This document shows positions 1-34,155 of a stretch of 34,956 nucleotides of DNA, piece after piece. The stretch comes from a virus. The notes under the pieces are model-generated. The model worked only from the letters and a program-made list of their open reading frames with translations, searched no databases and had not been told where the DNA came from. The stretch lies in IMG/VR virus record IMGVR_UViG_3300029260_000255, positions 1 through 34,956 of that record; one strand, 5' to 3'. Numbering within the stretch: the first letter of the stretch is position 1; each line of letters starts with the position of its first letter. The position numbers were made by a program, and so were the translations under genes.

Positions 1-2142
1 AGTAGTGTAAACTTTACATGCCCCGCCAACATCACCTCTATTTTTAACAGATAATTTAACAGGACAATACGCTTCACATTCAAATCCTGTATTATTGCAT
101 GGTCCTTCTAACTGTATTTGTACTAAAGATGGAGCTGCATTAGGTTTTGGTACTACCATCATAGCATAACCTGGTGCGTTTTGAGTTAAAGTAACACCAC
201 CCGAAGCTTGATCAGTATAAGGCCCCATAACAATTGATGCACCTGCAACAAACGCAGGAATGTTAGGATCCCAAATATGCGATAGTCCATCATACGTTAT
301 ACCATTTGAACCAAGCGCATTTGTAATTGTTCCATCAACTCCCCCAACACCTGAAGTTAAACAGGAATCAAATCCTGGAGGGCAAGGGCATGGACTTCCT
401 CCACCAGCTATACTTCCTATTGCTCCTTGGAGATAACCAAAAATTGGAGAAGAATATTCACTTGCACTATTACCATCATAAGTCCATGTACATTTATCAG
501 GAACGTTAAATGATTTCAGACGAATAATAACAGCTCCTGTTGCTGCGCCCGCATCCATATCTATATTGTATTGCCCATTTGATAAGTTAGTTCCATTAAA
601 ACTTCCTCCACAAGGAGCAATAGGAATAGCAGTACATGGTGTAATTGACCGAACTATACCAGGTACTCTTGCTCCTGTTGATTGCACATCAGAAGCTGTA
701 ATTCCTGCATTCCAATCTGGAGACCAAGTTTGCCCTACATAATCTTCAGGTGGCAATGGATTAAATTGACCAGGAGTACCTGTATTAGATACGTCTTTAT
801 ACTCTCTTGGGCCAACTTGCACTGCCCAATTTTGAACTCCTCCTCCATCCAAAGCATCAAATTGCATTTTATAAACACCAACAGCAACAGGCGTTACTCC
901 ATAAGGATCTTCATATATCCAGTCTGATAATCCTAAAACCCCATTTGGTTGCCCTAATGGAACAACACCAGCTGCTGAAAAAGAGTCACCATTATAATAA
1001 TAAGAATTAGGATTAGTATTACCCCAGTTATCTACAGGTACATGATAGAAAGTTGTATCTACTACGTAATCACAAACATCTGCAAGAGGTGTTTTAGTTA
1101 ATTGACCAGCTGGAGTTTGATCATCTTCCAAGTCCCCAAATTGAGTTGATGAAAGTATAGGCGCTAATAATTCGGGACACTTAACATCAATACCCCACCA
1201 TGTTGATGTACAAGGACCAACTACACTTACCTTTAAATCTGTTTGAGGTATCCCTGGAGGAGATGGCACTACCATAACTGCTGGTTTAACTGATAAACCA
1301 CACGCCTGAAATTGAGTATTTCCTCCTGCAGAAAATGGCATTAAGTTTGGAGCTAAAGCAACATTGTTATTATAAGGACTTGCAGGAACTCCTAATGCTG
1401 TACTACAAGTTGAAATGCTTGTACTACAATTACAGTTACTTGTAGACTTATCAATACAATTCCAATTTAATAATGTAGATTGATAATCTCCTGTATTATT
1501 AACTATTCCTGTCCATCCAATCGGAGAAATTATACTACCTAATGGTTGGTTGACATTGGATATATTAAAAATTGATGAAGCATAATTATAATCATAAATT
1601 GTTCCAAGTGATTGTGAATTAACAGTCCCAAGTCCTGTTTTAATTAAAGGCCCAACTGGACTTTGTAGAGATAAACATGGATTTCCAGATGCATAAGTTG
1701 GACTATCAAAACCTCCGATAAGTCCTTTTAAATAACCACCTGTTAGCTGAGAATATTCTGATCTTTTTATCTCACCATAAGGAGTTGATGGACTAACGTA
1801 AGTCCATGTACATTGATCTGGAACAGGGAAATAAGTGCTGTTGTTAAGGCCAGGACTAAAAGTAATAATAGCTGCACCTGGAAGGCTACCCATACCAAAT
1901 ACAATGTTATATTCACCAGTTGATCCACCGTTAAAGTAAAAAGGATCACCGCAAGGTATTATACATGATTCGCAAGGAACCGCAGCTAATAAAATACCAT
2001 TTGATATTTCACGAACAAAACCTCCAAAGGCATAAAATCCGTCAGGGGATGGACTTGAAAGAGCAGCATCACTAAAAAATGCAGTAGCTGAAAAGAAAGA
2101 AGTTCCACTCCAGTATACTTGTAGTTGATTATTACACGACAT
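1..2142 (-). CDS. Cys-rich tail-tip/adhesin-like protein, partial (3' end outside window)
   Basis: An open frame runs from an ATG at 2142 to base 1 with no stop, so 714 residues are visible and the C-terminus is missing. I recognise no catalytic domain. The protein is rich in Cys, Gly, Pro, Asn and Ser and contains a large internal duplication: the motif VPDQCTWTY near base 1812 recurs as VPDKCTWTY near base 492, exactly 440 codons later, and a later MVVP segment followed by a GPC motif also recurs (near 1275 and 159). Each unit looks like a beta-rich extracellular module with paired cysteines. It lies directly downstream of the giant tail protein with a long AT-rich leader, so a distal tail or receptor-binding role is inferred from position and composition. 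The start is chosen because it opens the frame after the preceding stop and has the AT-rich leader typical of this genome. Confidence 0.8.
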   Translation of the reverse strand, partial: MSCNNQLQVYWSGTSFFSATAFFSDAALSSPSPDGFYAFGGFVREISNGILLAAVPCESCIIPCGDPFYFNGGSTGEYNIVFGMGSLPGAAIITFSPGLNNSTYFPVPDQCTWTYVSPSTPYGEIKRSEYSQLTGGYLKGLIGGFDSPTYASGNPCLSLQSPVGPLIKTGLGTVNSQSLGTIYDYNYASSIFNISNVNQPLGSIISPIGWTGIVNNTGDYQSTLLNWNCIDKSTSNCNCSTSISTCSTALGVPASPYNNNVALAPNLMPFSAGGNTQFQACGLSVKPAVMVVPSPPGIPQTDLKVSVVGPCTSTWWGIDVKCPELLAPILSSTQFGDLEDDQTPAGQLTKTPLADVCDYVVDTTFYHVPVDNWGNTNPNSYYYNGDSFSAAGVVPLGQPNGVLGLSDWIYEDPYGVTPVAVGVYKMQFDALDGGGVQNWAVQVGPREYKDVSNTGTPGQFNPLPPEDYVGQTWSPDWNAGITASDVQSTGARVPGIVRSITPCTAIPIAPCGGSFNGTNLSNGQYNIDMDAGAATGAVIIRLKSFNVPDKCTWTYDGNSASEYSSPIFGYLQGAIGSIAGGGSPCPCPPGFDSCLTSGVGGVDGTITNALGSNGITYDGLSHIWDPNIPAFVAGASIVMGPYTDQASGGVTLTQNAPGYAMMVVPKPNAAPSLVQIQLEGPCNNTGFECEAYCPVKLSVKNRGDVGGACKVYTT

Positions 2143-14052: not shown

Positions 14053-16488
14053 CTATCTTGGATCAAATTCAGATAAATCAAAACCATCTAAGCTATCTTC
14101 ATTAGACTCAAAATTTATAGGCGTTCCTCCTGTTTTTCTTTGTTGAATCATTTTAGATTGTTGAGTTCCAGCTTGACTTATACGTTCAGCTTTTGCATCT
14201 TCTCTTTTATTTTCTCTTACATCAACTTGTTGTTCTTCCATTCCTCTTAACTGCATATTCATGTTAAACTCAACTTGCATTAATTGGCGCTTAAGATCTG
14301 CTTCATTTTTTTGTTTCTCAATTTCAAATGCTATCTCTGCCTGCTTAATTTGTATTTTAGCTTGTAGTTCAGCTTGAGTTTGTTGCATTTTAGCTTGAGC
14401 AGCTTGTTGTTGAAGTTGTTGTTGTTGCTGTCCTTGCATAGCTTGTTTCTGTTGTTCTTGCTGTTGAACTTCTGCTGCTCTTTGTTTTCTTTTTACTTTT
14501 AAAAGTTGATTAGCCATTTTTAAATTATTAATAGTTCTAATATCAATAGCATCTTCTAAATCAATTCCACCTTGTTGTAAAGACATTTGTATATTAGCTT
14601 CTAACTGAGACTTTTCTTCTTCATCTGGACTCATTTCAATAAATATACCAAAGTCATGAAGATAAAGATTTTTTATCTCTTCTAATATTGATAAATTATA
14701 TTTACCAATTTGCATAGCAAATTCATCTCTATTTTCAGCATACTCTAATACATCAGCAGTTCTTATAGATAAACATTCTGCTAAAGTTTTAGTTATGTAA
14801 AGACTTGATTGTAAAATATGTCGTGTAGCTACATTAGAATTTAAAGCTGCCAATTTCTGAACCCCAACTAAAGAATTAGGATCTGGCATACTTGCATCTC
14901 TTGCTTCATTAAGTCCAGTAACTTGTCTTAACATTCCTAAATAATGATTATAGTTCCCAATAAGCATTTGCATTTTACTTTGTCCACTGTTTGAAGTAAG
15001 TTGAGTAATTGGAACTTTAGCATTATTAAATTCTCCATCTTGAGTATAACTTCTACCAATAACGGAACCTGTTTGGAAATATAATCGTAATGCATCTTCA
15101 GGATTATAAGCCTGGCCAGTACCTAAGTCTATTTCACTTAATCCATCTGCATCTATAAACACACCATCTGGAACTACTTTAGCTACAACTTGTTGTATTT
15201 TTAAATGGCTTATTTGTATTAAATCAGCAAAAGGAATCATTCTTCTAACTAAAGATTCTAAATTTCCCTTATACATTCTTGGAGCACATGCCACATAATT
15301 AGGCATAGCATATTGGTTAGCAGAATTAGGTCTAACCATATTCTCCATCATTTTCCATTCCAGCATAATGTTTGTTCCCATAACCATAACACCCTCATAC
15401 CAAACATCAATTCTTTTTTCTACTCTTTCAAAATTACCCTCATCCATCATTTCTTGTGGAGGATTAAATTCATCATCTTTCTCTACAGTCTTAAAGTTGC
15501 CTTCAGCCATTTTCTTTTTCTTGTACACAAAACTGTTAGTACTTTTGTAATTAAAATATAATAAAGTACAAGTATCTCTTGAGAACATACTGTTGTTATA
15601 CATTGCTTGACTGTTATAGTAATCATACCAAGACTGACTATACTTGGATATTTCTTCCATTTGTTCAAGAGTAATAGTTGGATCAATTTTAACAACTTCA
15701 CCAATCGGAACTGTTTTTATTTCTCCCCAGTAAAAAGTATCTTTAAAATACGGATCTTCTGTGTAGCTATAAACAACATTAGCGGGATCTACATACTCAA
15801 CCTTTATACCATCTCCTTTTTGAAAAGTATGTTTAGCTATACCTACACCTAAAGTAGTAATATCAAGATCAATTCTTTTTCTTGTATCAGCATAATGATT
15901 TTCATTAAACATGGTATTAATAGCTATTTCATTTGCTATCTCAATCCCTGGTTTATAATTAAGCTGCATATATAATTCCATTTCAGCATCACTTGTTGGT
16001 AGTGTTTTAGGATCTACTTGAAACACTTCCATCTGAAAGTCTTTTTCTATTTGTTTAAATAAGTCTTGAGCTACAACATTAGTCTGAACCATTTTCTGAA
16101 ATTCATTTCTTTTTTCAGCTGACATTGCATCCATAGCAGTGCAATTAACTTTAAATAATCTATCTGACATCCCGTTAACTACTATATCTACAAACTTAGG
16201 AATAATTGGAACTGGTGTCCAATCTAAATTTAAATAAGACAAATCACCATCTACTGCTAATTCATTTTTGTATTTAGATACAGACTGTTCTCCACGTGCA
16301 TACAGCCTTAATCTATGAAATTCTCCCCACTGATCATAAAACCTACAACCACTTCCTTCCTTTCTAAACCACTCATATTGTATGGCTTGACCTACTATTA
16401 ATCCGAATTCAACTTTAGCTTTTTCTTTGTCAGGAGCAAATTGATCAGGGAAAGCAGTTGACCTTATATTTATTGTAACGTCTTTCAT
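14053..16488 (-). CDS. Portal protein (811 aa)
   Basis: Length, location between large terminase and scaffold, and sequence pattern fit a podovirus-type portal: an N-terminal FHRLRLYARGEQSVSKYK and VPIIPKFVDIVVNGMSDRLF segment (residues about 57-124) resembling portals of crAss-like and marine phages as remembered, then an alpha/beta wing, and a long C-terminal Gln-rich helical region (about 660-770, with QQQEQQKQAMQGQQQQQLQQ) that would form the barrel in the capsid. It forms the dodecameric DNA channel at the vertex and binds terminase. The start overlaps the terminase stop by four bases (ATGA), so the two are translationally coupled. A -7-like element lies inside the terminase end at 16529-16536. 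Confidence 0.88.
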   Translation of the reverse strand: MKDVTINIRSTAFPDQFAPDKEKAKVEFGLIVGQAIQYEWFRKEGSGCRFYDQWGEFHRLRLYARGEQSVSKYKNELAVDGDLSYLNLDWTPVPIIPKFVDIVVNGMSDRLFKVNCTAMDAMSAEKRNEFQKMVQTNVVAQDLFKQIEKDFQMEVFQVDPKTLPTSDAEMELYMQLNYKPGIEIANEIAINTMFNENHYADTRKRIDLDITTLGVGIAKHTFQKGDGIKVEYVDPANVVYSYTEDPYFKDTFYWGEIKTVPIGEVVKIDPTITLEQMEEISKYSQSWYDYYNSQAMYNNSMFSRDTCTLLYFNYKSTNSFVYKKKKMAEGNFKTVEKDDEFNPPQEMMDEGNFERVEKRIDVWYEGVMVMGTNIMLEWKMMENMVRPNSANQYAMPNYVACAPRMYKGNLESLVRRMIPFADLIQISHLKIQQVVAKVVPDGVFIDADGLSEIDLGTGQAYNPEDALRLYFQTGSVIGRSYTQDGEFNNAKVPITQLTSNSGQSKMQMLIGNYNHYLGMLRQVTGLNEARDASMPDPNSLVGVQKLAALNSNVATRHILQSSLYITKTLAECLSIRTADVLEYAENRDEFAMQIGKYNLSILEEIKNLYLHDFGIFIEMSPDEEEKSQLEANIQMSLQQGGIDLEDAIDIRTINNLKMANQLLKVKRKQRAAEVQQQEQQKQAMQGQQQQQLQQQAAQAKMQQTQAELQAKIQIKQAEIAFEIEKQKNEADLKRQLMQVEFNMNMQLRGMEEQQVDVRENKREDAKAERISQAGTQQSKMIQQRKTGGTPINFESNEDSLDGFDLSEFDPR

Positions 16489-18773
16489 GTAATTATTTGA
16501 CTTGTATTGCTTGAATTATTATATCTCGCAAAGTTAATACTTATTTTTGATTTTTCTTTAGAGGGTGTATATAAGTGCTTCTGATTAGCCATAATAGCTA
16601 ACCCCGAACTAATAGCAGCATCAAACTTAGTTCTATTGCTTATATCAAACTTAGCCCAATCTTCTAAAGTCTTTCCAAAATACATCACTCCCATGTCTCC
16701 TGGCTCACGATTATCTCCATTAAAATCTATACCTATATATTTTTCTATATACGATTCAATAGCTGATGCGTGTGATTGTTTAACATCTTCAGAAGTGTTA
16801 GGAATACCTCCTAATTCCTTTTCTGTTTTAGATAATTTAGTGTATACTTTATCTGGTCGATTTAATGAATAACCTCTGTATCCTCTATTTTTAAAATGAT
16901 AAAGTAATCGAGGTTTATTATTTTCACAAAGTATTGGCATTCCATAAAATATACACGCCATTAATACTTCTTCAAAAAATATTTCAGCAGTCTGAGGTCG
17001 AGCTATATACTCTAAAAAAAAATGATTAACTGGAGCTTGATCCATACTAAATTTAGTAAGACCATGTAATGATCCATTAGATCCTTTACCAACAACAACT
17101 CCAGATATATCATAAGAGTCACAACCGAATGAACCGATATGCTCATTACCTGGCTTCTTTTTTCCTCTTTCCATTATTACCTTATTATCCATTCCAGGAG
17201 GAGGAGTCCAACTTACTAAAAATCTTCCATGTTTGTTTGGCGACCATATTACTTTGCTATCTTTTATTCCGTTTTCCCAAGAAAAAGATCCTCTTGTAAT
17301 ATGATGATCTATTATTAAAGAATCATTATAATCTACTTGTTGATATATTTTTGTTAAATTAAATATAGACTGTTTACTTTCATCTCTAAACGCATGAGAC
17401 TCAGTACGAGGAAATTGCCTGTAAAATTCATTTAACGCATCAGGATCTTGAGATAAAGAAGCTACTTCATTTTCCCAATAATCTATAGCCCCTATACTAA
17501 TTAATTCTCCATCTATTCCCATGACAGGAGCTTTTGGAGTTTTAAATATAGGCATTCCATATCTGTCAATATATCCTTCAAAATTCCATTCCATAGGAAC
17601 AAATAAACAATACAATCCACTTTTTGTTTGTCCGTTAGCATTTCTTTTAGAAGGAAGTGAATCGTCAAAAAGAGATTTAAAATTTCTACCTCCTTTATCT
17701 AAAGCATTTGATGTTGATCCCATCATACATTTACCAATAACCTTACTACCTAATCGTAAGCATGTTTTAGTTACACGCCAGTTATTCAATATGTTATCTG
17801 GTCTTTCCCATTTACCACTTTCATCATGTAATAGTAACTGTAATTTTTCACCATCATAACTATTATCACCAGTGTTTTTCCAGTCAATAGTTGTATCTAA
17901 TCCCTCCAGTTCATCATCAGCGAGATTAAACATATTCTTTTTTGTAATTTTAGATGCAGGAACTCTATATGCTAATTCAGTTTTAGGTTTATCCATACCA
18001 TCTTGTATGGGTTTAAAAAAGAATGGATAATTCTTTGATATAGGGACAACTTTATCGGTAAACATTTTTTTAGCATCCGCCCCACTTTTGGAAAGTATTC
18101 CTATTCTTGAATCTTTAGTAATAGTAGCTTGATTAACTCCCTCACATGAACTCATAAAAGAAAATCCTGAACGTCTTATTTTTAAATAACACATACCGAA
18201 ACTTCGTTTATCAGCTTTACAAGCCTCCCAAAATAAATAAAAAATTCTATTAGCTTCCCTAAAGTCAGGGTTTCCTACATCAATTTTTGTCCATTGCAAG
18301 TACATGTAATGAGTCCCTGTTATATATGTAGGGCTCCCATTATTTATAAACCAATAACCCTGCTCTCTTCTATTAAATTCTTCTTCTATATAGTCTACCC
18401 ATTGAGACTTAAAATTAGCTGGAGTTTCATGCCATTGAAATATAGATTTAACTCTATTTAATTCTTTAGAAATTGGAGTTGTTTCCCAATACTGTTCTTC
18501 TTTAGTTTTAGATCTTTTATATATTTCTTTTGGAGGTTTTGGTAAGGCTATTTGTAATCCATTAATATTAATAATAGAACCTATCTGACCATTTTTAGAT
18601 ATAACAACTACATCGTATTTTTCATTATACCCATACAACCAAGACCTACCTCTATTTTTATTAGATATAATAGTATTAGGAATAAGTTTTGTTACTTCTT
18701 TATATAATTTATTTTGATCTTGATTCTGCAAATCCTTTAGGTGTATTATTTTTTCTTTCGGCAACATTACCAT
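16485..18773 (-). CDS. terL: Terminase large subunit (762 aa)
   Basis: DNA-packaging ATPase and nuclease. The ATPase half has a lambda-type deviant Walker A, KIRRSGFSF (residues 198-206, Lys at the first position rather than before Ser/Thr), a Walker B LLLHDE (313-318) and a coupling motif GSTSN (352-356). The nuclease half shows a first acid in GSFGCDSYD (Asp552), a second in ILCENNKP (Glu617) and a C-terminal Asp in KFDAAISSGLA (Asp718), the RNase H-like triad pattern. The start at 18773 (or the Met at 18767) overlaps the preceding 92-aa gene by about 60 bases; no in-frame Met lies further down before conserved-looking sequence, so the overlap is probably real. It is coupled to portal by an ATGA overlap. 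Confidence 0.92.
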   Translation of the reverse strand: MVMLPKEKIIHLKDLQNQDQNKLYKEVTKLIPNTIISNKNRGRSWLYGYNEKYDVVVISKNGQIGSIININGLQIALPKPPKEIYKRSKTKEEQYWETTPISKELNRVKSIFQWHETPANFKSQWVDYIEEEFNRREQGYWFINNGSPTYITGTHYMYLQWTKIDVGNPDFREANRIFYLFWEACKADKRSFGMCYLKIRRSGFSFMSSCEGVNQATITKDSRIGILSKSGADAKKMFTDKVVPISKNYPFFFKPIQDGMDKPKTELAYRVPASKITKKNMFNLADDELEGLDTTIDWKNTGDNSYDGEKLQLLLHDESGKWERPDNILNNWRVTKTCLRLGSKVIGKCMMGSTSNALDKGGRNFKSLFDDSLPSKRNANGQTKSGLYCLFVPMEWNFEGYIDRYGMPIFKTPKAPVMGIDGELISIGAIDYWENEVASLSQDPDALNEFYRQFPRTESHAFRDESKQSIFNLTKIYQQVDYNDSLIIDHHITRGSFSWENGIKDSKVIWSPNKHGRFLVSWTPPPGMDNKVIMERGKKKPGNEHIGSFGCDSYDISGVVVGKGSNGSLHGLTKFSMDQAPVNHFFLEYIARPQTAEIFFEEVLMACIFYGMPILCENNKPRLLYHFKNRGYRGYSLNRPDKVYTKLSKTEKELGGIPNTSEDVKQSHASAIESYIEKYIGIDFNGDNREPGDMGVMYFGKTLEDWAKFDISNRTKFDAAISSGLAIMANQKHLYTPSKEKSKISINFARYNNSSNTSQIIT
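16529..16536 (-). promoter_or_regulatory. Possible internal promoter TAACTTTG ahead of portal gene
   Basis: TAACTTTGC lies 41 bases upstream of the portal ATG but inside the end of terL, where it encodes part of INFARYN. It matches the motif used elsewhere in the window, but a chance match in coding sequence is possible. Confidence 0.35.
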
Positions 18774-18987
18774 CTAACAGTGATCTTTCTTCTTCTATTC
18801 TTTTTAATATTTCAAAAGCATCAAAAATAGCTAACTTTTTAGTTGCTGCTGCATTTTTTAATCTATCGGCCGCCAATGGATCTTCAGCTTCATACTTAAT
18901 AATATCTTCTTTAGCTACTTTAACTAATTGTTTAACAGCTTTTTCTCCAGCCTCTATTATGCTTAATTTAATTTCTCTTATGTCCAT
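18709..18987 (-). CDS. Small terminase subunit candidate (92 aa)
   Basis: A short, charged, all-helical protein (RLKNAAATKKLAIFDAFEIL at about residues 41-60, then KRIEEERSLL). It has no recognisable HTH, but its location directly before terL, with a long overlap of its 3' end with the terL start, is the usual place of a small terminase subunit. It begins at a TAATG overlap with the oxygenase gene stop. From memory, proteins with this helical pattern precede terminases in marine phages. The role is inferred from context; an unrelated small head-morphogenesis protein is the alternative. Confidence 0.65.
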   Translation of the reverse strand: MDIREIKLSIIEAGEKAVKQLVKVAKEDIIKYEAEDPLAADRLKNAAATKKLAIFDAFEILKRIEEERSLLDGNVAERKNNTPKGFAESRSK

Positions 18988-19559
18988 TATTTGTATTTAT
19001 AAAACATTACGTATACTTGTCTTCCTTCTTTCCAAGACTTGTTAGGATACTTACTGTGAAAGTAATTAGATGGATAAGATATGATTCTATTCTGCTCATA
19101 TCCAGAAACAGAAATTAATCTCCACATATCTAAGTTCTCTGAGTCTTCTCTTATAGTTCTATCATACTCTTCATTTGTTACAGAAGAAGGTAAACTATTA
19201 CCGTATATTTCATGCTCCCAAAATGCAGTTCCATTTAACTCCTCTAATTCTCTGGGTGACATATAAATAACTGCAGCTCTATCAGGTTTTTCTCCTTTTA
19301 TATTTAAATCAGAATGTATTCTCCAAGTATTATCGAACTCATCTGTAGATACTCTAAAAAAACTTAATATATTTTCTAAAGACCTACCCTCTATTATTTC
19401 TAATTTTTTTAAAACGTATTCATTAAAAGATTCTGGAGACTCTTGAACGTAAAAGTTTTTTTCACCTACAGTATGTTTTATAAATTCTCCTTTATTTAAA
19501 TAATTTGTAGCTATTTTAAATAAATCTTTATCTATGAAGTTATCTACAGTATATATCAT
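18987..19559 (-). CDS. 2-oxoglutarate/Fe(II)-dependent dioxygenase (190 aa)
   Basis: The iron-binding facial triad is visible: WRIHSDLN gives His82 and Asp84, and SNYFHSKYP gives the distal His168; Arg180 in KEGRQVYVMFY is placed for 2-oxoglutarate binding. The core between (RAAVIYMSP, GTAFWEHEIYG) fits the double-stranded beta helix of prolyl-hydroxylase-like enzymes, and length is normal for the small phage versions also common in marine cyanophages. It would hydroxylate a protein side chain or another small substrate in the host cytoplasm; the substrate cannot be read from sequence. The gene overlaps the upstream GroES-like gene by four bases (ATGA) and the downstream small gene by one, tying it to the packaging operon. 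Confidence 0.88.
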   Translation of the reverse strand: MIYTVDNFIDKDLFKIATNYLNKGEFIKHTVGEKNFYVQESPESFNEYVLKKLEIIEGRSLENILSFFRVSTDEFDNTWRIHSDLNIKGEKPDRAAVIYMSPRELEELNGTAFWEHEIYGNSLPSSVTNEEYDRTIREDSENLDMWRLISVSGYEQNRIISYPSNYFHSKYPNKSWKEGRQVYVMFYKYK

Positions 19560-20119
19560 AATATCATTGTTATGTTATTAGTAAACATTCTATATAGTTT
19601 TTCATCGTCTACTGTAAATTCATAATCGCTATCTGGTGTAAATGAAATACGATCACCAACAGAAACTCCTAAGTCTAACAACTCTTTATTTATATATTTA
19701 ACTATTCCCATTAATGGCTCTTCTTCACAATTTTTAAATAGATAAGAGTCTTTAGTTTTAATGGGTTTTATAAAACAATATTTACTATGAGCCATCCAAG
19801 TTTCTTTATTCTTATATAAAAAAAATTGTTCGTTGTCTATTAAAAATAAATCGTCTTTAAGAAAGCTTCTTCCACTTTTTTGTCTTCCTTTCATATCATA
19901 ATAAAATTTAAATACATTATGATGTACTAACAAACTATCTCCTTTTTTTACTGGACCACTATAATTTATAGGTAATGCCACAACTTCAGCAAAACGATTA
20001 GAAGATACATGATCTTCTTGAGATACACTTGTTATAAATTCAGTGTCTGCTATTTTTTTAATATTGTCATACCTTCTTCCATTTAAAGGTTTAACAATAA
20101 AGTTATATGGAGATCTCAT
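19556..20119 (-). CDS. Possible double-domain GroES-like co-chaperonin (187 aa)
   Basis: The C-terminal half follows the GroES beta-barrel pattern: YCFIKPI (114-120), EEPLMGIVKYIN (133-144), VSVGDRISFTPDS (152-164) and EFTVDDEKLYRMFTNNITMI (167-186), matching in order the KPL, GxVxxVG, VGDxVxFxxY and ExxxDGExxLxxxxxDIxA blocks of GroES. The N-terminal half shows a weaker version: FIVKPL (7-12), RFAEVVALP (42-50), VKKGDSLLVHHN (57-68) and LFLIDNEQFFLY (91-102). A tandem arrangement is known in chloroplast Cpn20 but would be unusual in a phage. The gene is coupled to its neighbours by TAATG (upstream) and ATGA (downstream) overlaps. If not a co-chaperonin, it is a GroES-fold structural protein. 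Fold assignment is by eye only. Confidence 0.6.
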   Translation of the reverse strand: MRSPYNFIVKPLNGRRYDNIKKIADTEFITSVSQEDHVSSNRFAEVVALPINYSGPVKKGDSLLVHHNVFKFYYDMKGRQKSGRSFLKDDLFLIDNEQFFLYKNKETWMAHSKYCFIKPIKTKDSYLFKNCEEEPLMGIVKYINKELLDLGVSVGDRISFTPDSDYEFTVDDEKLYRMFTNNITMIL

Positions 20120-20337
20120 TAAAAGTTTATATTAAACTCTAATGATATTGGTAGTGTATTTAAAAATTCTTTCCATAAATAAACAACCTCACCTTTTTGA
20201 ATCCATATTTTATATGATCCTTCTATTGATTGAATAAGATGTATTTTATGAGATCCTCCTAAAACGTCTTGCCCTACTATGTAGTGCATTGCGCCAGACT
20301 TATAGTCTGCGCCAATTGATATTTTTCTAATGTCCAT
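20119..20337 (-). CDS. Hypothetical protein (72 aa)
   Basis: Small, with a mixed beta pattern (GAMHYIVGQDVLGGSHKIHL, SYKIWIQKGEVVYLWKEF). No family recognised, no membrane segment. It has the genome's typical AT-rich leader, sits 25 bases downstream of the fibre gene, and its stop overlaps the start of the GroES-like gene (TAATG), so it opens the chaperone/oxygenase/terminase operon. Its coding nature is supported by this spacing and coupling. Confidence 0.7.
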   Translation of the reverse strand: MDIRKISIGADYKSGAMHYIVGQDVLGGSHKIHLIQSIEGSYKIWIQKGEVVYLWKEFLNTLPISLEFNINF

Positions 20338-20362: not shown

Positions 20363-22720
20363 TTATACTGCTGTATATGCCCATCTTAAATCACATCTTC
20401 CTTGAACACTTACAGTACCTGATGATGATTGTGTTATAGTAAAATATAAAGCTTCTGTACCCACAAATGAATTTGGAGATAAACTTACATTACCACATAC
20501 TAAATTGTCTGTACCAGTAGTAGTAATAGATACGGCTCCAACTTTTGAAGGAGTATAAGAAGCATTACATGGATCATATTTAAAAAATTCTATAAGAAAT
20601 GGAGCACCAGAAGTACCAGCTATAGATACGACACCACCACATAAATTACTTTGAAGAGTGTCAGTTGCGCAAGAAGAAGTTCCATTATTTGCATTACCAT
20701 ATATTGTAGCTCCTAATTTTTGAGAATTAGTCCATCCAGATCCAGTAGAAGTACTTACATAAACTAATTGATCAGCACCACTTGGACTCCATGAACCTTG
20801 AGATATATTACCATAAGAATAATACTCCTGATACATATTAACATCTTTAACTCCAAATTTAAAATTAGTTGAAAAATTGTTTGATCCTCCTCCTGATCCA
20901 GAAGGTGTTACCCACGAACCATCTCCTCTTAAAAAAGTTGTGTTTGTTCCTCCCTGCGGTACAAATCCTTCTAAAGTTCCCCCTGCATATCTTTTAGGAC
21001 TAACAGTAGCTACAGTTCCCACAGTAGTTACAGTTAAAGGTTGTCCTACCGATGTGCCACTTGCTCCTAACAACACTTGTGTAACTCCTACAGATCCACC
21101 AGAAGGTATTACCCATGTACCATCTCCTCTTAAAAAAGTTGTGTTTGTTCCTCCAGATGGAACTACACCAAGGTTAGAACCTCCAACGTATACTCTTTGC
21201 GATAGAGTAACTACTCCATTAGTAGTACTCGTAGTAAGTGGAGCACCTGCAGAAATAAGTGGAGAACCTACTGTAAGTGAAATTATTCCAGAATTTGCTA
21301 TTACTAATTGAGAAGAACTACTTCTTGTGATAACTACGCCATTAACTCCCGTTAATGTTATATTTTGATTATTCCCATTGTTATCAAGAAGATTTAAATT
21401 AGTAGTAGCAGCTGGAACTGAATAAGTGTAAGTGGTATTTACAAGACTTGGATTGATCCATGTTAGAATTCCTCCACTAATTCCTAAAAACTGACCGTTT
21501 GATCCTATAGATCCATTAGCCTGTATATTTGTTGGTATAACTGTTGGTAAGGTAATACTTGCAGTACCTGTTAAGGTAATACTTAAAGCTGAAGTAGCTC
21601 CTACAGCTAAAGTGTCATTTAAATTACAACATGTAGTTGCAACCCAAGCTAACCCAGAACCTGTTGAGCTTAATACCTGGCCTGCTGCTCCAGCAGATAA
21701 AGATGTGTCAAGTATAGTTCCTGCTGTAAGAGAACCTGTTATATTTATAAGTGCATTTGCTCCCGTAGCAACATTACCTGCATTTAATACTTGTTGTAAT
21801 GTATTTGTTCCTGATGAAGATGGAGACCATGTCACTCCAGTTCCTGTAGAAGTTAATACTTGGCCTGCCGTACCAACTACACCAGTTGAATCCGCCAACG
21901 TTCCTGATAAATATATTCCAGCTGTAACTGAAGTTGTTCCATTATTGCTAAAAGTATTGTTACCACTCCAAACATTAGCTGCTGCAGATGTAATTGAATT
22001 TCCAGAAGAAAAAGTAGTTACACTTGTTCCTGTAAATGTTATCCCAATATTATTAGCAATATTACCTGCACTTAATGTAGCTTGTAATGTACAGCATGAT
22101 GATCCTGGAATAGTTGATGACCATTGTAAGCCTGTTCCTGTAGAAACTAACCATTGTCCTGCTGTACCTGTAGATCCACCAGCGTTTATTTGACCTGTAG
22201 AGTTAAATATTAAATCTGTTGAATTAATATTTACATTTCCTGTAAAAGTACTTACTCCTACACCTGTTAAAGTAGCAGAGGATGCAATAATTAAATCAGC
22301 TCCTACACCTGTAAATGTCATACTTGTTCCACTTACAACAGATGCTGTAGTAGCAGTATTCCCTATTAATAGAGTATCATTCCAAGAAGAATTTGCTCCT
22401 GATGCTGCAATCCATTGTAAACCTGCGCCTGTTGAACTTAGCACTTGACCAGCTGTCCCAATTCCACCTCCTGCTGTAATAGTAGTTGGTGATACAGTTC
22501 CAACAACAACAATATTACCTGTTAAGTTAATATTTTGTGTTGCAGTATTACCTGTATTTAAAACTGATTGTAAACCCTGAAGTACACCTGCACCTCCAGT
22601 TAAACTACTAACTAAAAACGTAACCGTTTCATTATCGTTACTAACATCAGTACCAATAAGTAAATCGTCAGCTGATGGTACTATTGTAGGATATACGGTG
22701 GTGTTTTCAATTCTTGCCAT
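20363..22720 (-). CDS. Tail fibre protein with GQVLSSTG and FLRGDGTW repeats (785 aa)
   Basis: A repetitive, Gly/Thr/Ser-rich fibre. Five repeats of the type AGQVLSSTGAGLQW occur through the first 400 residues, followed by two units containing GTNTTFLRGDGTWVIPS spaced 67 codons apart. A C-terminal globular part with several Cys (near 645-785) could be the receptor-binding head. The N-terminus (ADDLLIGTDVSNDNETVTFL) resembles the start of the 260-aa fibre-like gene (GDKWIGTKEGTNATKNFS), suggesting a shared virion-anchor. Repeats of this kind form trimeric shafts in phage fibres. It has its own consensus promoter at 22744-22751, 24 bases upstream of the ATG. Confidence 0.85.
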   Translation of the reverse strand: MARIENTTVYPTIVPSADDLLIGTDVSNDNETVTFLVSSLTGGAGVLQGLQSVLNTGNTATQNINLTGNIVVVGTVSPTTITAGGGIGTAGQVLSSTGAGLQWIAASGANSSWNDTLLIGNTATTASVVSGTSMTFTGVGADLIIASSATLTGVGVSTFTGNVNINSTDLIFNSTGQINAGGSTGTAGQWLVSTGTGLQWSSTIPGSSCCTLQATLSAGNIANNIGITFTGTSVTTFSSGNSITSAAANVWSGNNTFSNNGTTSVTAGIYLSGTLADSTGVVGTAGQVLTSTGTGVTWSPSSSGTNTLQQVLNAGNVATGANALINITGSLTAGTILDTSLSAGAAGQVLSSTGSGLAWVATTCCNLNDTLAVGATSALSITLTGTASITLPTVIPTNIQANGSIGSNGQFLGISGGILTWINPSLVNTTYTYSVPAATTNLNLLDNNGNNQNITLTGVNGVVITRSSSSQLVIANSGIISLTVGSPLISAGAPLTTSTTNGVVTLSQRVYVGGSNLGVVPSGGTNTTFLRGDGTWVIPSGGSVGVTQVLLGASGTSVGQPLTVTTVGTVATVSPKRYAGGTLEGFVPQGGTNTTFLRGDGSWVTPSGSGGGSNNFSTNFKFGVKDVNMYQEYYSYGNISQGSWSPSGADQLVYVSTSTGSGWTNSQKLGATIYGNANNGTSSCATDTLQSNLCGGVVSIAGTSGAPFLIEFFKYDPCNASYTPSKVGAVSITTTGTDNLVCGNVSLSPNSFVGTEALYFTITQSSSGTVSVQGRCDLRWAYTAV
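20899..21154. repeat. Two 55-bp near-identical direct repeats in the fibre gene
   Basis: 20899-20953 and 21100-21154 are offset by exactly 201 bases (67 codons), differ at only a few positions, and encode the FLRGDGTW blocks. They keep the reading frame, so recombination between them would shorten the fibre by one unit. Confidence 0.85.
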
Positions 22721-22743
22721 TACTCAATTTTTATTAATTTTTA

Positions 22744-22751
22744 CAAAGGTA
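22744..22751 (-). promoter_or_regulatory. Bacteroidota-type -7 promoter element TACCTTTG
   Basis: TACCTTTGT on the minus strand, 24 bases upstream of the 785-aa fibre gene, in the gap after the 361-aa fibre gene. Confidence 0.7.
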
Positions 22752-22763
22752 GTAAAAATAAAA

Positions 22764-23849
22764 TTATGAGATTTGATTTATTGATAATCTACATCCACTA
22801 ATAAGAGATATTAGTGCTGATGTTGTTGATGTCCTTCCTTGTATCCAAAATTGAGCCCTGATTTTTGAGTTAGCACCTACATTATGTAAAACTGTAGCCG
22901 ATCCACTATCTCTATCTACACTACCGTTTCCTCTAACATAATTAAAAACTTGTGTTCCTTGTATATCTGAGAAGGAACCACGATTTGGAGCGTATTGCAC
23001 AACTGCACCAGCTAACAATCTATTAGGAACTGAACCGTTTTCACTTGCAAAATTAAAGCTAATCATTACTAATTGTGCAGCAGTAATATCTACTTCACTT
23101 CCACTTGCATTAGAAGACATACCTACTTCTGTTATTTCAGGAGTATCAAATAAAACTGTTACTCGAGTTTCAGTAGCTCCACCTCCAGCTATTGTTTGTG
23201 CATTTTCTGGAGACCAAGAACCTTTATTAGACGTTGGTACTGAGGTTATATAACCAGCCCCATTTGTTAACTGATTATTATTAGTTGGAATTGTTGGAAA
23301 CGTACTTCTATTTCCATCTCCCCTTATATATTCTGTTGAAGATCCTTGCCAATCTAAAACAATAGAGGGAGAAGTTGTTGGATTTGCAACCGCAACCGCT
23401 AATCCATTACCAGTTACTGAAGCAGCAACATTTGTTACTGTACCTTGAGGATTACTAAATGACACTTGAATAATACCACCTGGCTGACCTAAAGTAATTG
23501 TTGTAGTAGAAGTTCCTGAAGCAGTTATAGCTGACACACTGTCAAGGTATGCAGTATTCCAATTTGCAGAATTACCACCTGAACCAGTAATACCAAGATT
23601 AGCAAGAGTTAAAGTTCTTGTTGTTGCAGATGTAGCAACACCATTTGTAAAATTTAAAGTTGCAAATACAGTGGCAGTATTAAGAGTATTATTTTGATTA
23701 ATACCTATAGTTGTGTTTCCACTTGAAGTTACATACCCCTGACCATTAGTTAACTGGTTGTTATTAGTCGGAATAGTAGCACTTGAAAATGCTAATGTTC
23801 CTAAAGCTACCCCCTCAATAACAAGTGAATCCTTAAATTCTATTGCCAT
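22764..23849 (-). CDS. Tail fibre-like protein (361 aa)
   Basis: Begins MAIEFKDSLVIEGVAL, similar in style to the start of the next upstream fibre gene (MAINFLDGIDFNGTEI), and contains two TNNNQLTNGxGYxTS motifs and a EYIRGDGNRSTFP block near residue 175, all seen in phage fibre shafts. The last ~140 residues (from GSWSPENAQ) are non-repetitive and would form the distal domain. There is no enzymatic motif. It lies 12 bases downstream of the 631-aa fibre gene with the AT-rich leader and no promoter, so it is co-transcribed with it. It may be a paralogous or alternative fibre. Confidence 0.8.
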   Translation of the reverse strand: MAIEFKDSLVIEGVALGTLAFSSATIPTNNNQLTNGQGYVTSSGNTTIGINQNNTLNTATVFATLNFTNGVATSATTRTLTLANLGITGSGGNSANWNTAYLDSVSAITASGTSTTTITLGQPGGIIQVSFSNPQGTVTNVAASVTGNGLAVAVANPTTSPSIVLDWQGSSTEYIRGDGNRSTFPTIPTNNNQLTNGAGYITSVPTSNKGSWSPENAQTIAGGGATETRVTVLFDTPEITEVGMSSNASGSEVDITAAQLVMISFNFASENGSVPNRLLAGAVVQYAPNRGSFSDIQGTQVFNYVRGNGSVDRDSGSATVLHNVGANSKIRAQFWIQGRTSTTSALISLISGCRLSINQIS

Positions 23850-23861
23850 TATTTAATTTAT

Positions 23862-31803: not shown

Positions 31804-32277
31804 ATGCCAAATATAATACGTAAGAACTACGATAGAGTTCAACCCTCTCATGATTACATGAAGTACTGGAGGGTGATAAGGTATTGGGCTAAAGCCAAAT
31901 ACAAAGTCGGAACTCCCGCTATAGATATGTTATTTTTCTTATACAGCGAACAGATATTTAATAAAACAAAGTTTAAAGAGTTTGAAGAATGTATGTCTTG
32001 GGATGAATCCAGGTTTTATGAGCTACTTAAGTCTGGATGGATACACGTGTGGAGAAAAAGAAAGGGTAAAGAAGCTACTTTGTATGAGTTATCTTATAAA
32101 GGTAAACGACTGGTAAACACTCTTTACAAAAAACTAAACGGAGAAGAGATAGGGGAAAGCCCGCAGGCTAATCCTTTATTTAGAAATGATGCCACTTACA
32201 TGGATAAAGTTTATCGTAATATGATTGTAGAGATGAATCAGTTTATAAAACAACAACGATATCTCGCTCTTGAATAA
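31804..32277 (+). CDS. Winged-helix DNA-binding protein, MarR-like candidate (157 aa)
   Basis: The only plus-strand gene in the window. Residues about 37-112 follow a winged-helix layout: helix IDMLFFLYSEQIF, helix TKFKEFEECM, recognition-type helix DESRFYELLKSGWIHVW, a basic wing RKRKGKEATLYELSYKG and helix KRLVNTLYKKL. The order helix-helix-helix-wing with KEATLYELSxKGKxLV is like MarR/PadR-type regulators. The start at 31804 has an A-rich leader and a -7 element; the longer frame back to 31381 is the reverse strand of a basic gene and is rejected. Its end overlaps the GroES gene end by 35 bases, tail to tail. It could repress its own divergent promoter or switch late genes. Confidence 0.75.
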   Translation: MPNIIRKNYDRVQPSHDYMKYWRVIRYWAKAKYKVGTPAIDMLFFLYSEQIFNKTKFKEFEECMSWDESRFYELLKSGWIHVWRKRKGKEATLYELSYKGKRLVNTLYKKLNGEEIGESPQANPLFRNDATYMDKVYRNMIVEMNQFIKQQRYLALE

Positions 32278-32500
32278 TAGTATAAGGATTATCTTCTATT
32301 AACATATTATGACCTGCACCTGCATCATAATATATGATATCTCCAGAATTAATAACAGTAACATCAGTTCCTTCTTTAATTACTTCACCTTTCTTATACC
32401 TAAATTCTGAAGCATCTTGTGCTGATAGTAGAAGCCCAGACTCTGTCTTAAGCTCTTCCTTGATCATTTTAATTACTATGTACTTCCCTATTGGTTTCAT
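32243..32500 (-). CDS. groES: Co-chaperonin GroES (85 aa)
   Basis: A short GroES: MKPIGKYIVIKM gives the first strand, TESGLLLSAQDA (residues about 19-30) is the mobile loop with the GLLL hydrophobic triplet that docks on GroEL, KKGEVIKEG (36-44) is the conserved turn, NSGDIIYYDAGAGHNMLIED (51-70) the roof/barrel, and IIQERDIVVV the final strand. It is about ten residues shorter than cellular GroES, as often in phage versions such as T4 gp31-type caps (which are instead larger). It lies 62 bases downstream of the GroEL gene with no promoter between, so the two are probably co-transcribed, and would cap a GroEL ring for folding phage proteins. Confidence 0.88.
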   Translation of the reverse strand: MKPIGKYIVIKMIKEELKTESGLLLSAQDASEFRYKKGEVIKEGTDVTVINSGDIIYYDAGAGHNMLIEDNPYTIIQERDIVVVL

Positions 32501-32562: not shown

Positions 32563-34155
32563 CTAAGCATCAGTATGTATTCTTGCATGCGTAACAATAG
32601 CGTTAGTAGTAAGTATTGTAGATGCAACACTAATAGCATTAGATAAAGCCTCAGAGGTAACCTTAGCTGGATCAACTACACCCATCTCAAACATATCTCC
32701 ATACTCTCCAGTTACAACATTGTATCCAAAGTTCTCAGTTTTTTTATGGAAGAGATCATTATCATATATTTTATCAACCTCTAATCCAGCGTTTATAAGT
32801 ATCTGAGTTAACGGAGCTACAAGGGCATGTCTAATAATCTTATCAGAAGTACTATCTGAATTATAATCTTTAGCTAAGGTAGCTAATAACAATCCGCCAC
32901 CAGGTACAATACCTTCCTTTAGTGCGGAACGAACTGCACAAACAGAGTCATCGACTCTGTCAAATTTTTCTTTTTGTTCTATATCAGATGTAGCACCTAC
33001 TTGTATACATCCTATTCCTCCAACTAAACTTGCTATACGCTCATTCACAAAGTCACGCTCATGTTTAGCAGTTAAAGTTTCTTGCTGTTCTCTAAGTTCT
33101 AATACTCTGTCAACTGTTTCTTTACTAATCTCTCCATTTTTTATAATGATAGTAGAGTCTTTACCAACTATAATTTTATCAGCAACACCTAAGTCTTCCA
33201 TTCTAATCAAAGATAAATCGTCTCCAGTCTTTTCTGAAAAGTATTTAGCTCCTACTGAGAATGCAATGTCCTGCATAAGCTCGTGAGACTTGTATCCAAA
33301 TGATGGAACTTGTATATTACAAAACTGTAACCCATTACGCTGCACATTAGCAGCGAGAGTATTAATAACATTAGTAGAACAGTTACCTATGATAAGTAAT
33401 TTATCTCCAGCATTAATAATTGGTTTAAGTATATTCTCGATTTGAAGTATATTAGTAATCTCAGTATCGCATAACAATACTTTAACACCATCCATAACAC
33501 ACTCGTCTTTTCTTTGATCGTTAATAAACATAGTGGATGTGTACCCTCTATCAACTTTTATACCATTAGTAACCTCAGCATAAGTTTTGTCAGTTTGAGA
33601 TCTCTCAACCGTTACTATACCATCCTTACCCACTTCTTTGTATGCTTTGGCAATAATTTCGCCAATCTCCACATCATTGTTTGCAGAGATAGTTGCAATA
33701 TCAACAAGCATCTCATCAGTAACATCTACAGCATTATTTTTTATTTGCTTTAATAGATCATCACCAGCCGCTCTAATCTCTCTAACAACCTGTATAAGGT
33801 TATCCTCCTTAGTTATAAAACTCTGTCCCGCCTTTACTAATGCTTCTGTAAGTACAATTGCTGTAGTTGTACCATCACCTGCGGTGTTAGCCGTCTTCTC
33901 CGAAGCTTGCTTCATCATCCTAACTGCTAAGTTCTCTATAGGATCAATAAGAAATATACTCTTAGCTACAGTAACCCCATCTTTTGTTACTGTTAATCCT
34001 TGAGTATGTTCTTGTGATTCAATAAGCACTGTCTGGCCCTGTGGCCCCAGAGTTGACTTAACTGCTTTAGATATTTTGGAGATTCCCGATATTAACTTAT
34101 CTCTCGCTTCTTCATCAAACGATAAGTCTTTAGGTATGTAACCTTGCTCTTGCAT
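32563..34155 (-). CDS. groEL: Phage chaperonin GroEL (530 aa)
   Basis: A full-length group I chaperonin. ATP-site motifs are in place: STLGPQG (34-40; Gln where bacteria have Lys), TKDGVTVAK (57-65) and AGDGTTTA (92-99). RVDDSV holds the catalytic Asp equivalent to E. coli Asp398, and EGIVPGGG and MGVVDPAKV follow. The apical domain keeps GYTSTMFIN and LLIIGNCS-type strands. It ends at HARIHTDA with no GGM tail, which cellular GroELs carry. The N-terminus is a few residues longer than in E. coli. A -7 element lies 32 bases upstream. It forms the folding chamber in the host cytoplasm, probably for capsid or other phage proteins, with the GroES just downstream. Identity is certain; client proteins are inferred. 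Confidence 0.97.
   Translation of the reverse strand: MQEQGYIPKDLSFDEEARDKLISGISKISKAVKSTLGPQGQTVLIESQEHTQGLTVTKDGVTVAKSIFLIDPIENLAVRMMKQASEKTANTAGDGTTTAIVLTEALVKAGQSFITKEDNLIQVVREIRAAGDDLLKQIKNNAVDVTDEMLVDIATISANNDVEIGEIIAKAYKEVGKDGIVTVERSQTDKTYAEVTNGIKVDRGYTSTMFINDQRKDECVMDGVKVLLCDTEITNILQIENILKPIINAGDKLLIIGNCSTNVINTLAANVQRNGLQFCNIQVPSFGYKSHELMQDIAFSVGAKYFSEKTGDDLSLIRMEDLGVADKIIVGKDSTIIIKNGEISKETVDRVLELREQQETLTAKHERDFVNERIASLVGGIGCIQVGATSDIEQKEKFDRVDDSVCAVRSALKEGIVPGGGLLLATLAKDYNSDSTSDKIIRHALVAPLTQILINAGLEVDKIYDNDLFHKKTENFGYNVVTGEYGDMFEMGVVDPAKVTSEALSNAISVASTILTTNAIVTHARIHTDA

What the first reader, a model, noticed from the sequence alone, without database searches (positions are those of the whole stretch)
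19556..20119. Possible tandem double-domain GroES-like protein next to the terminase genes
The 187-aa product seems to contain the GroES block order twice (FIVKPL...VKKGDSLL...DNEQFFLY and CFIKPI...VSVGDRISF...DDEKLYRM). Double co-chaperonins are known from plastids (Cpn20). With the separate GroEL and GroES of this window, the phage may have two different caps, perhaps for different substrates such as capsid protein and another late protein.
Basis: inference. Interest (0 to 1): 0.7.

Follow-up and report, generated by a model that had tools for sequence, protein, structure and literature searches.

The report
Double-domain phage GroES-like chaperonin cap
This gene of a marine phage makes a protein that looks like two GroES lids joined in a row, a design known from plant plastids, and it usually travels with a separate single GroES, which suggests that the two may build one mixed seven-part lid for the folding chamber.

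Summary
The 187-aa ORF is on the minus strand (20119..19556) with all six blocks in place. The C half is a GroES domain by profile and fold. The N half is not recognisable by sequence, but predicted alone it takes the GroES fold (top 15 structural matches all co-chaperonins). The best whole-chain PDB match is Cpn20, the plastid double co-chaperonin.

It is a family: 540 IMG/VR stretches in one scan, 85 phage records. Terminase follows in 202 of 206 copies; the other four sit at contig ends. Of 35 viral records with the double, 33 carry a separate single GroES, and 5 of those (71-76 kb) lack GroEL. Of 24 other records chosen for the single GroES, 20 have the double.

Best mechanism (inferred): three doubles plus one single close a roofless seven-domain lid on phage or host GroEL to fold late proteins. 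In the window's lineage only the N domain keeps a full-length loop. Databases label relatives 'co-chaperonin GroES'; my paper searches found no description of a phage double. New variant of a known kind.

The parts
19556..20119 (-). tandem double-domain GroES-like protein, 187 aa
   Evidence: PHROG 13932 E 1.2e-22 over residues 1-183; AF2 pLDDT 86.4, pTM 0.79; Foldseek top match Cpn20 7ekq_R E 1.5e-5
19805..20119 (-). N domain, residues 1-105: GroES fold by prediction only
   Evidence: AF2 of residues 1-108 pLDDT 88.3, pTM 0.79; VIA ranks 1-15 all co-chaperonins, E. coli GroES 4pkn_X Z 7.2, rmsd 2.8, 81 aligned; best other entry Z 4.9
20000..20086 (-). N-domain loop between first and second long strand (residues 12-40), mobile-loop equivalent
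   Evidence: lowest model confidence in the chain (mean pLDDT 73 and 62 for residues 21-30 and 31-40); 30-33 residues between anchors in 45 of 45 relatives against 24 in E. coli GroES
19916..19924 (-). HHN motif, residues 66-68
   Evidence: 44 of 45 aligned relatives
19856..19909 (-). N-domain hairpin extension, residues 71-88, with no counterpart in ordinary GroES
   Evidence: read from the alignment and the model's strands; placing it as an insertion is inference
19559..19804 (-). C domain, residues 106-187: GroES by profile and fold
   Evidence: profile match to PDB GroES chains E 7.9e-5 over positions 115-186; hhalign probability 94-95; VIA Z 10.2 against GroES 8wuc_a, 79 aligned, rmsd 1.9
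19709..19765 (-). C-domain loop, residues 119-137, shortened in this lineage
   Evidence: 17-19 residues in 41 of 45 relatives, 26-28 in the other 4
32243..32500 (-). separate single-domain GroES, 85 aa, proposed ring partner
   Evidence: Pfam Cpn10 E 1.7e-11, PHROG 3188 E 1.5e-15
32563..34155 (-). phage GroEL, 530 aa
   Evidence: Pfam Cpn60_TCP1 E 2e-53; 36.5% identical to E. coli GroEL, D52, D87, D398 and D495 kept (importance of these residues recalled)
16485..18773 (-). terminase large subunit downstream of the double
   Evidence: PHROG 6681 E 5.2e-177; same order in 202 of 206 copies
20119..20337 (-). conserved 72-aa protein just upstream, sharing one base with the start of the double
   Evidence: homologues at the same place in 5 of 5 phages compared

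Best explanation
The gene encodes a co-chaperonin made of two GroES-fold domains joined head to tail. Shown by computation: GroES profile and fold in the C half, predicted GroES fold in the N half, conserved place before the terminase genes, purifying selection, company of a separate single GroES. Inferred: in the infected cell three doubles (six domains) and one single GroES close a seven-domain ring that caps the seven-fold GroEL (the phage's, or the host's where the phage has none). The ring lacks the roof loops, as T4 gp31 does, and helps to fold late phage proteins such as capsid or terminase proteins. In the window's lineage the N domain carries the full-length GroEL-binding loop and the C domain a shortened one.
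For: Whole chain: Foldseek top match is Cpn20 (7ekq_R, E 1.5e-5) and ranks 1-36 are all GroES, Cpn10, Cpn20 or gp31; VIA 7ekq_R Z 10.3, 159 aligned, rmsd 4.5, model 1..187. N half alone: Foldseek ranks 1-14 and VIA ranks 1-15 all co-chaperonins. C half: profile E 7.9e-5 to PDB GroES. Partnership: separate single GroES in 33 of 35 viral records with the double; in the reverse test 20 of 24 records picked for the single have the double. Five of the 35 (71-76 kb) have double and single but no GroEL match (two of these records searched again with the window's GroEL). All domains roofless: 11-14 residues between anchors in the doubles against 21 counted by hand on E. coli GroES (sequence), and a gap there in the phage singles of the alignment. 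gp31 also lacks roof loops and folds the T4 capsid protein (passages of PMC6318259). Cpn20 and Cpn10 form functional seven-domain hetero-oligomers (passages of PMC3542282; PMC4242682). Three doubles with one good loop each plus one single give four good loops, the least number said to be needed to bind GroEL (passage of PMC4242682).
Against: No stoichiometry and no GroEL binding could be tested. The N half has no significant sequence match: 0 of 50 N halves hit Cpn10 in Pfam, and a reversed N profile scored as high as the true one against two of three GroES profiles. Foldseek for the N half alone gives no E below 0.001, and Z about 7 is below the level that the tool itself calls safe. The gene is about 12 kb from the single GroES and GroEL, so not in one operon. 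The four records with long C loops (phi38:1, phi18:3, L111, L112) include three whose records I checked and which also have a single GroES, so the loop count cannot be the general reason for the partnership. In the window GroEL three apical positions recalled as GroES contacts differ from E. coli (234, 263, 264). In the window itself the loop motif is weak (ADTEF where relatives read GGIEF).
Confidence: 0.5

Rival explanations
1. Two separate caps: the double forms its own rings of three or four chains and serves one set of substrates, the single GroES forms ordinary heptamers and serves another.
For: The genes lie in different places, the single beside GroEL and the double beside terminase. 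[quoted passage not shown] falciparum cpn20 replaces GroES in E. coli (PMC3542282, title and passages).
Against: The single is kept in records that have lost or never had GroEL. Doubles alone would offer three or four good loops per ring in the window's lineage, at the limit quoted for GroEL binding (passage of PMC4242682; loop lengths).
Confidence: 0.25
2. A GroES-fold protein that no longer works with GroEL and acts as a head-assembly or terminase factor.
For: Fixed place before terminase and portal (annotated phages), shortened C loop in 41 of 45, an HHN motif and hairpin extension conserved beyond what a lid needs, weak sequence kinship of the N half.
Against: In the phi18:3 record nine proteins are marked as found by virion mass spectrometry, and the double (gp96) is not among them (annotation); this speaks only against a virion protein. 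A loop with the GroES-like motif persists in the N half, e.g. GGIEF, NGLIL, SGLVL, SGLEL. Steady company of a single GroES.
Confidence: 0.15
3. A two-storey cap: seven doubles, the N domains forming the ring on GroEL and the C domains a second tier that enlarges the chamber.
For: The two domains have diverged, and only the N domain keeps a full-length loop in most members.
Against: The whole-chain model aligns over both domains with Cpn20, whose domains are joined head to tail in one ring (fit is loose, rmsd 4.5-7.1). It would not need the single GroES.
Confidence: 0.06

Closest known systems
Cpn20, plastid double co-chaperonin (PDB 7ekq chain R, Chlamydomonas)
   Same: two GroES-fold domains head to tail in one chain of about 190 aa; best whole-chain fold match; found beside a single-domain partner
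   Different: phage gene; no roof loops; C-domain loop shortened in the window's lineage; N-domain hairpin extension with HHN; about 12-16% identity; PMC3542282 calls the double structure specific to eukaryotes of plant lineages (passage)
T4 gp31 (PDB 1g31)
   Same: phage co-chaperonin without roof loops and with a long mobile loop (passage of PMC6318259); structural match to each half (Z 6.9 to the C half; Z 6.2 to the N half)
   Different: gp31 is a single domain forming heptamers and works with the host GroEL; the window's phage has its own GroEL
Bacterial GroES / Cpn10 (Pfam PF00166)
   Same: fold of both halves, profile match of the C half
   Different: two domains in one chain; this protein scores 16.3 bits, under Pfam's cut-off of 21.1
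PHROG 13932 'co-chaperonin GroES', with Cellulophaga phages phi18:3 and phi38:1, Calle, Flavobacterium elemo phages, Maribacter phage Panino
   Same: same family over nearly the full length, same place before terminase
   Different: annotated simply as GroES, chaperonin cpn10 or hypothetical protein; the two-domain make-up is not stated in the records that I saw

Membership tests
PHROG 13932 | profile match over nearly the whole length | tested here: met
   E 1.2e-22, residues 1-183, profile 1-195 of 200
GroES / Cpn10 fold family | GroES barrel in the C half | tested here: met
   Z 10.2 with 79 aligned, rmsd 1.9; profile E 7.9e-5 to PDB GroES
GroES / Cpn10 fold family | GroES barrel in the N half | tested here: met
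   predicted model only: Z 7.2, 81 aligned, rmsd 2.8; ranks 1-15 all co-chaperonins; Foldseek best E 6.4e-3
GroES / Cpn10 fold family | sequence profile of Cpn10 recognisable | tested here: inconclusive
   this protein 16.3 bits, under the 21.1 cut-off, C half only; 31 of 45 relatives match at E up to 1, best 8.5e-8; seven relatives' doubles over the cut-off in genome searches (G027-G033); N halves 0 of 50
GroES / Cpn10 fold family | mobile loop with hydrophobic GroEL-binding motif | tested here: inconclusive
   loop present in the N half and low in model confidence; motif clear in many relatives (GGIEF, NGLIL, SGLEL), weak in the window (ADTEF); C loop short in 41 of 45
GroES / Cpn10 fold family | ring of seven domains that caps GroEL under ATP | not testable with these tools
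   needs purified proteins
Cpn20 | two Cpn10 domains head to tail in one chain | tested here: met
Cpn20 | roof and mobile loops in both domains (as stated for cpn20 in PMC3542282) | tested here: not met
   no roof in either domain, C loop shortened; so it works like Cpn20 but is not filed as a Cpn20
Cpn20 | gene of a plastid-bearing eukaryote | tested here: not met
   relatives are tailed phages, those with a named host infecting Flavobacterium, Cellulophaga and Maribacter
T4 gp31 | single-domain phage co-chaperonin | tested here: not met
   two domains

The most novel reading that the evidence does not exclude
Phages of Bacteroidota have evolved, apart from plastids, an obligate mixed lid of three double and one single co-chaperonin, in which (in the window's lineage) exactly four of seven domains carry a full GroEL-binding loop, the least number that binds GroEL, so that neither gene product works alone. 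The lid is roofless and enlarges or opens the chamber for a late phage protein.
Probability: 0.3. Interest if true: 0.78.

Novelty: new variant of a known kind. Interest (0 to 1): 0.6.

Why it matters
One of the papers seen calls the double structure specific to eukaryotes of plant lineages (PMC3542282, passage). A large phage family with the same layout would be a second, probably independent case, in organisms that can be grown (Cellulophaga, Flavobacterium and Maribacter phages). It makes the old symmetry question, how an even number of domains fits a seven-fold chaperonin, testable in a small system, and it gives a precise prediction: a 3 to 1 ring of double and single. It would also add a new way in which phages remodel GroEL for late proteins besides T4 gp31.

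Tried and rejected
Sequence-only proof of the N half: phmmer of the protein against PDB gave no co-chaperonin at E up to 10; the family profile matched GroES with the C half only; hhalign of the N half gave scores 15.5-20.9, reached by 0-2 of 200 column shuffles, but a reversed N profile scored 19.2 and 19.5 against two of the three GroES profiles. So I do not use sequence as proof for the N half. N against C half: 13 columns only, 3 of 200 shuffles as high.

Metabolic enzyme: GroES-like domains of alcohol dehydrogenases appear in the structure lists, but lower (Z 5.3 and less; 4.9 and less), and there is no nucleotide-binding domain in 187 aa.

Cap of a ClpP-like protease, suggested by the title of entry 7ekq (CrClpP-S2c): I did not look for a phage ClpP; kept only as a remote thought.

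Papers: searches (all ten allowed) found no paper describing a tandem double GroES in a phage. Most subscription papers are not in that library, so this is a weak absence. Papers seen as passages only: PMC5780408, PMC6318259, PMC3542282, PMC11348598, PMC11590407, PMC4242682. All others as search listings. The mention of contacts, ATP residues and the GroES motif is recalled.

Full report
What is there. The stretch 19556-20119 encodes, on the minus strand, a protein of 187 residues. Its start shares one base with the stop of a 72-aa gene upstream, and it overlaps the next gene (190 aa, 18987-19559) by four bases. Downstream follow a 92-aa protein and the terminase large subunit. A GroEL (530 aa) and a single GroES (85 aa) lie about 12 kb away on the same strand. 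The record holding the window is a virus record of 34,956 bases, so the genome may be incomplete.

Family. PHROG 13932, called co-chaperonin GroES, matches residues 1-183 at E 1.2e-22. Pfam Cpn10 matches only the C half, at 16.3 bits, under the curated cut-off of 21.1. Among 45 aligned relatives 31 match Cpn10 at E up to 1, the best at 8.5e-8. In IMG/VR 347 of 354 and 540 of 545 pattern matches encode relatives of two different queries (only the best 80 of each are kept, and the two sets can overlap). In the phage collection 85 of 50,697 records match: 68 of Flavobacterium sp. BAL314 phages, 15 Cellulophaga, one Maribacter and one unassigned record. A scan of one genome per species gave 11 relatives, all in contigs titled as MAG, so likely phage contigs binned with bacteria.

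Fold. AlphaFold2 with 45 relatives gave pLDDT 86.4 and pTM 0.79. In Foldseek against the PDB the first hit is chain R of 7ekq (E 1.5e-5, 208 columns), which the sequence library calls Cpn20 co-chaperonin subunit, and ranks 1-36 are all co-chaperonins. VIA-align gives 7ekq_R Z 10.3 over 159 residues, tied with GroES 8wuc_a at Z 10.2 over the C half alone, rmsd 1.9. So the C half carries much of that signal, and the relative placement of the two domains is only roughly like Cpn20 (rmsd 4.5 and, in Foldseek, 7.1). I therefore predicted residues 1-108 alone with 50 relatives: pLDDT 88.3, pTM 0.79. Foldseek ranks 1-14 are all GroES, Cpn10 or Cpn20, but the best E is only 6.4e-3. In VIA-align ranks 1-15 are all co-chaperonins, E. 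coli GroES at Z 7.2 (81 residues, rmsd 2.8), and the first other entry, a dehydrogenase with a GroES-like domain, has Z 4.9. Independent support: among predicted viral structures the phi18:3 protein, called chaperonin cpn10, matches over the whole length (203 columns, TM-scores 0.79 and 0.74, 21% identity).

What sequence can and cannot show. The C half is GroES by profile (E 7.9e-5 to PDB GroES chains; hhalign probability 95, 84 and 94 against bacterial, phage and joint GroES profiles). The N half is not: 0 of 50 N halves match Cpn10 in Pfam; its hhalign scores are reached by 0 to 2 of 200 shuffles, but the reversed profile does as well in two of three comparisons. The alignment that hhalign finds is nevertheless the expected one, loop to loop and GD to GD.

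Loops. Between fixed anchors the N loop has 33 residues in 37 of 45 relatives and 30-32 in the other 8; E. coli GroES has 24 by the same count. The C loop has 17-19 in 41 of 45 and 26-28 in four (phi38:1, phi18:3, L111, L112). Long C loops read like ordinary GroES loops in three of the four, e.g. GSIIVP in L111 and SLIYIP in phi18:3. N loops often carry a GroES-like motif: GGIEF, SGLVL, NGLIL, SGLEL, GGVEF in Panino; the window has the weaker ADTEF. The simplest reading is an ancestor with two full loops and a shortening of the second one in the lineages of the window and the elemo phages (inference). Both halves lack the roof loop: 11-14 residues where E. coli GroES has 21 by hand count; the phage singles of the alignment lack it too. 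T4 gp31 lacks roof loops as well (passage of PMC6318259).

Neighbours and partners. In 206 copies of the double on the loci held then, terminase follows on the same strand in 202 (113 within 700 bases, 89 within 2.5 kb); in the other 4 the contig ends within 1.2 kb. The copies are not independent, since some loci are near-duplicates or the same phage in two collections. I then searched the full records of 38 loci, picked mainly for contig length of 40 kb or more (L080 was left out by oversight): 35 viral records and 3 MAG assemblies. A separate single Cpn10 is in 33 of 35 viral records. The two without are G011, whose contig ends inside its GroEL gene, and G020, a 42-kb record with neither. 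GroEL is in 28 of 35. The seven without are G020, G037 (40 kb, single GroES at its very end), G029 (72.8 kb) and the four phi18:3-like records (71-76 kb, doubles 99-100% identical, so one lineage; phi18:3 is called a complete genome). Search of two of these records with the window's own GroEL also found none. In the reverse direction I took all 24 further records of 44 kb or more that came up by the window's single GroES: 24 have GroEL and 20 have the double. The four without it are 44-54 kb long, against 49-67 kb for those with it, so they may be fragments. Panino has a double, a single and a GroEL.

Mechanism. The head-to-tail layout, the match to Cpn20 and the steady single partner suggest the solution described for plastids, where Cpn20 and Cpn10 combine into functional rings of seven domains (passages of PMC3542282, and PMC4242682). 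Three doubles and one single make seven. [quoted passage not shown] three doubles with one full loop each plus one single give four. This is a prediction, not a result. It cannot be the general reason for the partnership, because lineages with two long loops keep the single too. The place next to terminase suggests late expression and service to a late protein. The two proteins are not among the nine that the phi18:3 record marks as found by mass spectrometry in the neighbourhood shown, which speaks weakly against a virion role. The phage GroEL keeps the catalytic aspartates but differs from E. coli at some apical positions recalled as GroES contacts, so co-adaptation of lid and barrel is possible.

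Verdict. A real and widespread tandem double co-chaperonin of Bacteroidota phages, with the second domain certain and the first resting on prediction. I put the two-GroES-fold reading at about 0.9, and the mixed three-plus-one ring at 0.5. It is a new variant of a known kind; the family is annotated in databases, but I found no paper that describes it as a double.

Noticed in passing
window 20119-20337, minus: A 72-aa protein just upstream of the double has homologues at the same place in MW202828, elemo, phi38:1 and Panino; a conserved small partner or head protein of unknown role.
   Followed up: partly
window 18709-18987, minus: The 92-aa protein before terminase is related to the gene at that place in MW202828 and, more weakly, phi18:3 (E 9.3e-6 from MW202828); a candidate small terminase subunit.
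   Followed up: partly
window 18987-19559, minus: A 190-aa protein with a weak match to DUF6445 (E 3.9e-4, below cut-off) and PHROG 1644 'minor coat protein' (E 1.3e-9) lies between the double and the 92-aa protein in the window but not in MW202828.
   Followed up: no
BFVD entry A0A516L046 (304 aa): A viral protein of 304 aa matches the double model over 217 columns (TM-score 0.73 by query); it may hold more than two GroES-like domains.
   Followed up: no
G035, the MAG behind L207: Eleven Cpn10 matches, several in frames of 142-216 aa; probably co-chaperonins of several phages binned together, perhaps with other fusions.
   Followed up: no
window 32243-32500, minus: The single GroES lacks the roof stretch that bacterial GroES has.
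   Followed up: partly
window 20363-25757, minus: Three large neighbouring ORFs (785, 361, 631 aa) rich in similar Gly/Ser/Thr stretches, tail-fibre-like in appearance.
   Followed up: no
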